From Sphingobacterium sp. LZ7M1 (GTDB lineage: Bacteria; Bacteroidota; Bacteroidia; Sphingobacteriales; Sphingobacteriaceae): a stretch of DNA of 64,000 bases. A program made the position numbers and the translations under genes. Position 1 is the stretch's first letter; each line of letters begins with the position of its first letter. The stretch lies in the NCBI RefSeq assembly GCF_024296865.1, contig NZ_CP101134.1:2046001-2110000 (forward strand). Reading direction: 5' to 3'. The notes beneath the pieces were generated by a model that was given only the letters and a program-made list of their open reading frames with translations, searched no databases and had not been told where the DNA came from. Shown one piece after another: positions 14,661-62,558 of the stretch.

Positions 14661-15203
14661 TTAATTTGAAGTTAAGAAATTGATAAATATTAAGAAGTAT
14701 TCTGGGTTAAGATGCTTCTGTAGAAATGCAAGACCTCTTTTTTTGTGGGTTTTGACCGTGTTGATACTGATATTTAATTGGTCTTTAATTTCATTGTTGG
14801 TTAATCCTTCAAAAAAGCTTAGTTTGATTACCTGTTGGCACATGTTGGGCAGGGCATTGACAAGTCTATCGATTTCTTGCAATAATTCGGTGTAGATTAC
14901 GAGGCGGTCTATATCTTGGGGATCTTTTTCATCAAATCCCGTAATTCTCCAATACCTTTGACTTATTTCAGTCCTTCTATGTTCGTTGATCAATTTATTT
15001 CTCACGGCAGTATATAGGAAGGATTTAATGGCCGATGGGTTGCTGGATATTTTAGATTTGTTCAATAGGTAAGAAGTGAATGCGTCCTGTGTTAGATCTT
15101 CTGCGCGTTCATAATCCCCTGTTAATTTGAATGCATAAAAATTTATGAATTTGTAATATTTGATATACAAATTTTTGTCAGACATATTGACTGGAGTGTT
15201 CAT
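14661..15203 (-). CDS. ECF RNA polymerase sigma factor (FecI-like)
   Basis: A 180-residue sigma-70 family factor with the two ECF domains: region 2 with GDYERAEDLTQDAFTSYLLN (about 28-47) and LYTAVRNKLINEHRR, and region 4 with LPNMCQQVIKLSFFEGLTNN and ISINTVKTHKKRGLAFLQK (about 145-163), the helix-turn-helix that reads the -35 element. It is the first gene of the sigma, FecR, SusC, SusD unit and should be the activator of that operon. An ATG at codon 7 (MSDKNLY) is an alternative start. Confidence 0.95.
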   Translation of the reverse strand: MNTPVNMSDKNLYIKYYKFINFYAFKLTGDYERAEDLTQDAFTSYLLNKSKISSNPSAIKSFLYTAVRNKLINEHRRTEISQRYWRITGFDEKDPQDIDRLVIYTELLQEIDRLVNALPNMCQQVIKLSFFEGLTNNEIKDQLNISINTVKTHKKRGLAFLQKHLNPEYFLIFINFLTSN

Positions 15204-61663: not shown

Positions 61664-61807
61664 ATTAAAAGAGGCCAACTTTTTACAGTCGGCCTCTTTC
61701 TTTAAAAAGTTATCTTCTTTTTTTCTTTTTATAACTCACGTCATAATTGAAAATAAAATAACCTTTTTTGTATAATTATAAACGCCCTAGTATCTGCAAT
61801 ATTGTGT
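61664..61807 (-). ncRNA. Candidate structured small RNA, copy A
   Basis: On the minus strand: ACACAATAT (61799-61807) at one end, a 13-14 base-pair stem AAAAAAGGTTATTTT (61755-61769) with AAGATAACTTTTT (61704-61716), a purine-rich loop, then a terminator hairpin and T-run at 61664-61699. Copy B 244 bases away repeats the same parts in the same order. The stem pairs better on the minus strand (G-U wobble) than on the plus (C-A mismatch), which favours this orientation. No coding frame with a start codon exists. No -7 element is recognised, and the known 6S family is not matched. The 61808-61910 stretch between copies is AT-rich with no gene. Confidence 0.4.
61667..61700 (+). terminator. Terminator of katE (shared hairpin)
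   Basis: AAAGAGGCC (61668-61676) pairs with GGCCTCTTT (61691-61699). In the plus direction it ends katE; in the minus direction the same hairpin followed by TTTTAATTTTT would end the candidate RNA A. Confidence 0.8.
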
Positions 61808-61910
61808 ATCTATTAACTTTTTTTTAATATTTTTTTAATAATGCCCTCTATTGGGCAATAAACAAGCATTTTTTAGAAAAAAAATATTAAAAAAATCTTT
61901 CATAAAATAG

Positions 61911-62050
61911 AAAAGGTTGACATTTTTCGATTGTCAACCTTTTCACTTAAAAAGTTATCTTAACTTTTTCTTCTTGAAACTAATGTCTCAATGATTTTAA
62001 AATAACCTCTTTTGTATAATGATAACGTTATTGTTTCCAGGATATTGTGT
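61911..62050 (-). ncRNA. Candidate structured small RNA, copy B
   Basis: Second copy of the element. ACACAATAT (62042-62050), stem AAAAGAGGTTATTTT (61999-62013) with AAGATAACTTTTT (61949-61961), purine-rich loop GAAGAAAAAG, and terminal hairpin AAAAGGTTGAC/GTCAACCTTTT (61911-61921/61933-61943) followed by TCTATTTTA. Four blocks are offset from copy A by 243-245 bases, so they are one ancient duplication. The conserved stem and terminator with a freely changed middle are the pattern of a small RNA. The terminal hairpin serves no protein gene in either direction. The 62051-62171 stretch is AT-rich and has no gene. Confidence 0.4.
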
Positions 62051-62171
62051 TAATGTTAATTATTTGTTTTCAATACTTTAACTGTGTAGCTAAGCGTCCT
62101 TAAAAATTAGAAAGAAAATAATGAATTGCTCATTAAACCGTTTTACATTTGTGAGGTCTTATTAAAAACTG

Positions 62172-62558
62172 ATGAAAAACAGAATGAAAAAAAACTATTT
62201 TAACAGGGCATTGTTACTGTTTAATACTTTTAAGAATAGAAAATTAACAAACGAAGATATAGAGATCGCTGAAGGAAAAGCTCAGCATTTAGAAGGCAAA
62301 ACCAATGAGTTCAAACTATTGATATCAATGATAAAGGATACTTTCTCCGGTCGATACAAGATGAACAAATGGAATATGTCCATTATTGTGGGGACTATCG
62401 TCTATGTTATTTCCCCAATAGATGCTATTCCAGATATTATCCCTGTGTTGGGATGGTTGGATGACGCTTCCATCGTTGGCTTTGCAATTTCAAAGTTAGC
62501 AGATGAGGTAGATCGCTATAGAAAGTTCCAGAAAACTGGAATAAGCACAGTAAATTAG
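62172..62558 (+). CDS. YkvA/DUF1232-family membrane protein
   Basis: A 128-residue protein. The DUF1232 core is IVYVISPIDAIPDIIPVLGW followed by LDDASIVGFAISKLADEVDR (about 78-116), which forms a short membrane-inserted hairpin. The N-terminal part is charged and helical. An ATG at codon 5 (62184) is an alternative start. Function of the family is unknown. A terminator follows. Confidence 0.87.
   Translation: MKNRMKKNYFNRALLLFNTFKNRKLTNEDIEIAEGKAQHLEGKTNEFKLLISMIKDTFSGRYKMNKWNMSIIVGTIVYVISPIDAIPDIIPVLGWLDDASIVGFAISKLADEVDRYRKFQKTGISTVN

What the first reader, a model, noticed from the sequence alone, without database searches (positions are those of the whole stretch)
61664..62050. Tandem pair of candidate structured small RNAs with terminators
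Two elements 244 bases apart share ACACAATAT, a long AT-rich stem (GGTTATTTT with AAGATAAC), a purine-rich loop and a terminator-type hairpin, all in the same order, while the sequence between these parts has changed. The stem is retained with a G-U pair on the minus strand but a C-A mismatch on the plus, which points to a minus-strand transcript. Coding is unlikely because no start codon opens either frame. Copy B's hairpin belongs to no protein gene. I know of no named RNA family that fits.
Basis: partly seen in the sequence, partly recalled or inferred. Interest (0 to 1): 0.75.

Follow-up and report, generated by a model that had tools for sequence, protein, structure and literature searches.

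The report
Tandem sibling small RNAs in Sphingobacterium
The window carries two neighbouring copies of a previously uncatalogued small RNA gene, each with its own promoter, folded body and terminator; related copies recur at the same kind of locus in at least twelve Sphingobacterium species, so it is very probably a real regulatory RNA family, though what it regulates is not known.

Summary
Two minus-strand units (A about 61664-61774, B about 61906-62017) share a 13-15-bp AU-rich stem (P1), a variable inner hairpin (P2), a purine-rich loop strand and a terminator hairpin. A covariance model of the RNA part finds 22 distinct copies in 12 of 94 Sphingobacterium genomes and no convincing copy elsewhere in the sampled order. 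P1 pairs in all 22, including double changes; covariation exceeds all 500 shuffles and every slid register. G-U pairs fix the strand as minus. The downstream gene is convergent in all 12 genomes and a DUF1232 gene is divergent upstream in 10, so these are stand-alone RNAs, not leaders or conserved antisense RNAs. Correction: ACACAATAT is not RNA but the -35-like half of a conserved promoter, ACAATA-N15-CGTT, resembling ECF-sigma promoters. The box also precedes a genus-wide second sRNA-like family and a 65-aa ORF. No Rfam family fits. Best explanation: sibling trans-acting sRNAs of a small ECF-type regulon in a genome where neither Hfq nor an RRM protein was detected. Expression, sigma factor and targets are not shown. 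New family of a known kind.

The parts
61781..61805 (-). Promoter of unit A: -35-like ACAATA (61805-61800), 15-nt spacer, -10-like CGTT (61784-61781)
   Evidence: Same spacing and boxes in all 21 distinct units with complete upstream sequence, spacer divergent; exact pattern in own genome
61813..61841 (-). A-tract/TTAA boxes phased by 11 bp upstream of promoter A (TTATTAAAAAAATATTAAAAAAAAGTTAA)
   Evidence: TTAA exactly 11 bp before ACAATA in 14 of 21 units, at both 11 and 22 bp in 11 of 21; UP-element-like, role inferred
61664..61774 (-). sRNA unit A, predicted transcript about 110 nt; 5' end estimated from the -10 box
   Evidence: CM match 61666-61773, 112.9 bits; fold z -9.7
61755..61768 (-). 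P1 5' strand of A (AAAAAGGTTATTTT)
61729..61746 (-). P2 inner hairpin of A (TTATGACGTGAGTTATAA)
   Evidence: Six of seven P2 pairs have two-sided changes across the family
61717..61729 (-). Purine-rich strand of the P1 loop of A
   Evidence: Sequence; A/G-rich in all units
61704..61716 (-). P1 3' strand of A (AAGATAACTTTTT)
   Evidence: position read from the sequence
61668..61699 (-). Terminator hairpin of A (GAGGCCGAC/GTTGGCCTC) and T-rich tail; may also end katE on the plus strand
   Evidence: Terminator scan; pairs covary
62024..62048 (-). Promoter of unit B: ACAATA (62048-62043), 15 nt, CGTT (62027-62024)
61906..62017 (-). sRNA unit B, predicted transcript about 112 nt
   Evidence: CM match 61908-62017, 98.3 bits; fold z -7.3
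61997..62011 (-). P1 5' strand of B (AAGAGGTTATTTTAA)
61974..61991 (-). P2 inner hairpin of B (TTGAGACATTAGTTTCAA)
61964..61973 (-). Purine-rich strand GAAGAAAAAG of B, the same in nearly all B-type units
   Evidence: Alignment A3
61949..61963 (-). P1 3' strand of B (TTAAGATAACTTTTT)
61910..61944 (-). Terminator hairpin of B with conserved loop AATCGAAAAAT
   Evidence: 13-bp perfect inverted repeat; conserved in B-type copies
62172..62558 (+). Divergent DUF1232 gene that marks the locus in most relatives; ATTAAAC-CGTT with a variable -35-like half lies upstream of it in the sRNA-bearing species compared
   Evidence: PF06803; synteny; upstream box

Best explanation
The locus encodes two sibling, independently transcribed, intrinsically terminated small RNAs of about 110 nt. 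Each unit has its own ECF-type promoter (ACAATA-N15-CGTT, often with 11-bp phased A-tracts upstream), a P1 stem enclosing a variable P2 hairpin and an exposed purine-rich strand, then a terminator hairpin. Shown by sequence comparison: a conserved RNA structure on the minus strand, non-coding, stand-alone locus, tandem copies (duplication and exchange between copies), conserved promoter-like box. Inferred: (1) an alternative ECF sigma factor switches both units on together, possibly with the divergent DUF1232 gene, a second genus-wide sRNA-like family and a 65-aa protein that carry the same kind of box; (2) the RNAs act in trans by base pairing to mRNAs through the unpaired purine-rich strand and the terminator loop; the constant P1 stem gives stability or a protein grip, while P2 and the terminator loops differ and give partly separate targets. 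The chaperone, if any, would be neither Hfq nor an RRM protein detectable by the Pfam models.
For: Homologous units in 12 Sphingobacterium genomes, in many 2-3 in tandem. P1 100% paired in 22 distinct sequences with two-sided changes A-U to U-A and G-C to A-U; covariation 0.379 vs 0.212 shuffled, 0/500, slides at most 0.141. Two members found by the RNA-only model and not by BLAST (L122, L137) carry the promoter box at the same spacing although the model excludes it. Downstream gene convergent (katE, FAD-oxidoreductase or symporter) in all 12 genomes; DUF1232 divergent upstream in 10. Promoter box conserved before a 65-aa ORF in 9/9 genomes and before the second sRNA-like family. A CGT -10 box is read as an ECF-sigma signature in Flavobacterium psychrophilum, where that promoter class also drives the sRNA Rfp11 (PMC9723704). 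Hfq and RRM_1 not detected.
Against: No transcript data. The box is not over-represented genome-wide (7 sites against 6 for the reversed control), so the regulon is small or the box is only part of the signal. None of 28 sigma-70 region-2 genes has a clear copy upstream, so the sigma factor is unidentified. The 65-aa gene's box also fits a TAnnTTGY-type promoter in most species. No target was predicted, and the high sequence conservation of P1 could mean protein binding rather than mRNA pairing.
Confidence: 0.72

Rival explanations
1. Protein-sequestering or protein-guided RNA: the constant P1 stem and purine-rich loop are a binding site, and tandem copies raise the dose of a decoy that titrates an RNA-binding protein (works like CsrB or 6S).
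For: P1 is conserved in sequence beyond what pairing needs (three pairs never vary); copies are amplified to three per genome; Hfq and RRM_1 not detected.
Against: One copy only in several species; no repeated short binding motif within a unit; the exposed segments differ between A and B types but are conserved within each type, as expected of separate pairing seeds.
Confidence: 0.17
2. Bidirectional terminators or 3' ends of the convergent genes, duplicated by chance, with no separate transcript.
For: Copy A's hairpin lies just beyond katE and could end katE transcription; a convergent gene always lies downstream.
Against: P1, P2 and the upstream box are conserved although the convergent gene changes (katE, FAD-oxidoreductase or symporter); copy B is not next to a gene end; P1/P2 covariation and folding favour one strand.
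Confidence: 0.05
3. Cis-acting or cis-antisense element of a neighbour (katE 3' UTR, DUF1232 leader).
For: Stable synteny with DUF1232 in 10 of 12 genomes.
Against: DUF1232 is divergent and outside the RNA; the downstream gene is convergent and differs between species; none of the neighbouring genes found lies on the RNA strand.
Confidence: 0.04
4. Short open reading frames (small proteins or a leader peptide) rather than RNAs.
For: Bacteroidota mRNAs generally lack Shine-Dalgarno sites, so small ORFs are easily missed (general knowledge).
Against: No ORF of 20 aa or more inside either RNA on the minus strand; indels break frames between copies; compensatory changes preserve pairs.
Confidence: 0.02

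Closest known systems
ECF-sigma-dependent sRNAs of enterobacteria (sigmaE with MicA, RybB, MicL; from general knowledge)
   Same: Short intergenic sRNAs with an ECF-type promoter and intrinsic terminator, several sRNAs apparently sharing one promoter class
   Different: No known sequence or structural relation; Hfq not detected here; sigma factor, signal and targets unknown
F. psychrophilum sRNA Rfp11 with an SM6 (CGT-box, ECF) promoter (PMC9723704)
   Same: Bacteroidota sRNA behind a promoter with a CGT -10 box attributed to an ECF sigma factor
FopS / GibS sRNAs of Bacteroides (PMC11697453, PMC7366714)
   Same: Multicopy paralogous intergenic sRNAs of Bacteroidota
   Different: FopS copies use the housekeeping promoter and bind the RRM protein RbpB; here a non-housekeeping box, no RRM_1 detected; Rfam GibS scores 20.9-24.2 bits against a gathering score of 115
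Tandem sibling sRNAs in general (OmrA/OmrB, Qrr, LhrC; from general knowledge)
   Same: Adjacent duplicates with shared ends and diverged middles, each with its own promoter and terminator
   Different: No known sequence relation

Membership tests
Any Rfam 15 family | Score at or above the family's gathering threshold | tested here: not met
   0 matches in the window and in related loci; best lax match GibS 24.2 vs 115 bits
GibS/FopS sRNAs of Bacteroides | Sequence/structure match to the GibS model | tested here: not met
   20.9-24.2 bits, gathering 115
GibS/FopS sRNAs of Bacteroides | RRM_1 partner protein (RbpB type) in the genome | tested here: not met
   PF00076: none in G000, control Bacteroides rings
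Bacterial intergenic small RNA (generic) | Stand-alone promoter-like box, structured body and terminator hairpin in an intergenic region | tested here: met
Bacterial intergenic small RNA (generic) | Detected transcript | not testable with these tools
   No RNA-seq available
Hfq-dependent sRNA | Hfq encoded in the genome | tested here: not met
   PF17209 none in G000 while the control rings in 5 known genomes
ECF-sigma regulon member | ECF-like -35/-10 boxes with fixed spacing, including a CGT -10 motif | tested here: met
   ACAATA-N15-CGTT (one unit ATAATA) in all 21 distinct units with full upstream sequence
ECF-sigma regulon member | Same box upstream of the cognate sigma gene (autoregulation) | tested here: inconclusive
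   28 sigma genes scanned; only one weak candidate, L231

The most novel reading that the evidence does not exclude
A small, previously undescribed ECF-sigma regulon of Sphingobacterium whose main output is RNA: two unrelated tandem sRNA families plus DUF1232 and a 65-aa orphan protein, working without Hfq or an RRM protein, in the manner of the sigmaE sRNA arm but with different machinery.
Probability: 0.3. Interest if true: 0.65.

Novelty: new member of a known kind. Interest (0 to 1): 0.45.

Why it matters
Small-RNA regulation in Bacteroidota is known mainly from Bacteroides and is poorly described in Sphingobacteriaceae. This gives a compact sRNA family with compensatory evidence, a defined promoter class and a covariance model, in a genome where neither Hfq nor an RRM protein was detected. 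It makes two open questions testable: which ECF sigma factor reads ACAATA-N15-CGTT, and which chaperone, if any, sRNAs use in these bacteria.

Tried and rejected
The first box patterns were poorly chosen: the one-mismatch search was no richer than control, and a 14-nt spacing missed the sites by one base; the corrected 15-nt pattern was used afterwards. Weak model hits in other genera or genomes (L123-L130, L138) were rejected: they share only the terminator hairpin and lack P1 and the box. DUF1232 loci of more distant relatives carry no unit. Plasmids and phages: no match. Search for an autoregulated ECF sigma gene was inconclusive. Literature on Sphingobacterium sRNAs: two papers held all terms, neither on this topic by title and abstract. 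A recurring site of the form ACAATATTGCAGCGTCAAATTCGTT in several genomes was set aside as probably coding; this was not checked.

Full report
What was claimed and whether it is there. The window is G000:C1:2046001-2110000 of a Sphingobacterium genome close to S. mizutaii. The two copies exist with 244-nt spacing and align over about 150 nt. On the minus strand each unit folds into a long AU-rich stem P1 enclosing a short hairpin P2, followed by a GC-richer terminator hairpin: A -38.6 kcal/mol (z -9.7), B -34.3 (z -7.3). No ORF of 20 aa or more lies inside either RNA on the minus strand.

Relatives. BLAST of the pair in 94 genomes of the genus gave clear loci in 11 genomes, and 20 units from them were aligned. 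A covariance model of the RNA part only (R1), run over 401 genomes of the family, recovered these and added one genome (G029, L122) and a second, diverged copy in G086 (L137), making 12 genomes; both new members carry the promoter box although the model does not contain it. The remaining weak hits are terminator look-alikes. A further search of 301 genomes of the order, which overlaps the first sample, gave nothing convincing beyond the genus. Plasmids and phages have none.

Structure test. On the model-fitted alignment of 24 matches (22 distinct), P1 pairs in 100% of cells, with two-sided changes at two positions (A-U to U-A; G-C to A-U) and only one-sided, pair-keeping exchanges elsewhere. 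P2 has two-sided changes at six of seven pairs. The whole structure scores 0.379 covariation against 0.212 +/- 0.013 in shuffles (0/500) and at most 0.141 when slid. The alignment is fitted to the structure, which favours it somewhat, but the slid and shuffled controls and the unsupervised folds of single sequences (one of the 20, L016, folded differently when its flank was included) agree.

Genome context. The gene downstream of the units is convergent in all 12 genomes: katE, an FAD-dependent oxidoreductase, or a dicarboxylate symporter, depending on the species. The DUF1232 gene lies upstream in divergent orientation in 10 of the 12; in G058 it was not found within the 1.5-kb flank and in G083 the contig ends. 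The three downstream genes are those that precede the pair in the window, so the neighbours have been lost or shifted while the RNA units stayed. This argues against a leader or a conserved cis-antisense role and supports a stand-alone RNA locus. Type A and type B copies mostly group by type across species, so the duplication is probably older than these species; G012, G018 and G031 have a second A copy, and the G021 second copy joins an A-type body to a B-type terminator, which points to exchange between copies.

ACACAATAT lies upstream of the likely 5' end. In all 21 distinct units with full upstream sequence there is ACAATA (once ATAATA), exactly 15 nt, then CGTT, while the spacer varies. 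TTAA lies exactly 11 bp before the box in 14 of 21 units and at both 11 and 22 bp in 11 of 21, one helical turn apart. The housekeeping Bacteroidota promoter is TAnnTTTG (PMC7366714), which this is not. A conserved CGT -10 box is attributed to an ECF sigma factor in F. psychrophilum, whose list of such promoters includes the sRNA Rfp11 (PMC9723704). In nine genomes searched for the box, conserved occurrences were these units, a 65-aa ORF beside nth and recA (9 of 9; no Pfam match), and a second sRNA-like family with a different body that is itself tandem and present in nearly all of the genus. Upstream of DUF1232, ATTAAAC-CGTT is constant in the ten sRNA-bearing species compared, with a variable -35-like half (ATAATG in the window), and is absent from the seven more distant homologues compared. 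The box is not enriched over control genome-wide and no sigma gene shows a clear copy, so an ECF regulon is an inference, not a result.

Mechanism. The best-supported reading is a pair of sibling trans-acting sRNAs. Shown: conserved minus-strand structure, independent promoter-like box and terminator per unit, non-coding, stand-alone locus. Inferred: ECF control, action by base pairing through the exposed purine-rich strand and terminator loop. Hfq and RRM_1 were not detected in the genome, so a chaperone, if any, is unknown. The main rival is protein binding, because P1 is conserved beyond what pairing requires.

Comparison with known families. No Rfam family matches. The closest functional parallels are ECF-driven sRNAs in other phyla and the FopS/GibS sRNAs in Bacteroides; membership in the latter fails on sequence and on the RRM partner. 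The finding is a new family of a known kind. Interest is moderate: well-supported structure and promoter-like box, unknown target and regulator.

Noticed in passing
G000:C1:1410605-1410872 (L081, L187; outside the window): A second tandem sRNA-like family, core TTTAGGTTAATAATTGGTTTGG plus terminator, with ACAATA/ATACTA-N15-CGTT upstream in many copies; 1-4 matches per genome in nearly all Sphingobacterium genomes sampled; no Rfam match.
   Followed up: partly
L004:1529-1767 (G000:C1:3756003 onward): A 65-aa orphan ORF between an S8 peptidase gene and nth/recA has the same promoter-like box in 9 of 9 genomes examined; no Pfam match.
   Followed up: partly
window 62104-62171: The DUF1232 gene divergent from the sRNAs has a conserved ATTAAAC-CGTT upstream with a variable -35-like half (ATAATG here) in the ten sRNA-bearing species compared; not found in the seven more distant homologues compared.
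   Followed up: partly
window 61813-61841: TTAA/A-tract boxes spaced by 11 bp upstream of promoter A, also seen before the 65-aa gene; could be an UP-like curved element or direct repeats for an activator.
   Followed up: partly
L012 (G021) 1705-1813: Chimeric copy: A-type body with a B-type terminator, suggesting gene conversion between tandem copies.
   Followed up: no
window 14970-15170, minus strand: One of 28 sigma-70 region-2 proteins of the genome (an ECF-size ORF, L236) lies inside this window.
   Followed up: no
L231 (G000:C1:1694226-1694417): ECF-size sigma gene with CGTTATAAT and a weak -35 about 55 nt before its start; the only faint candidate for the cognate sigma factor.
   Followed up: partly
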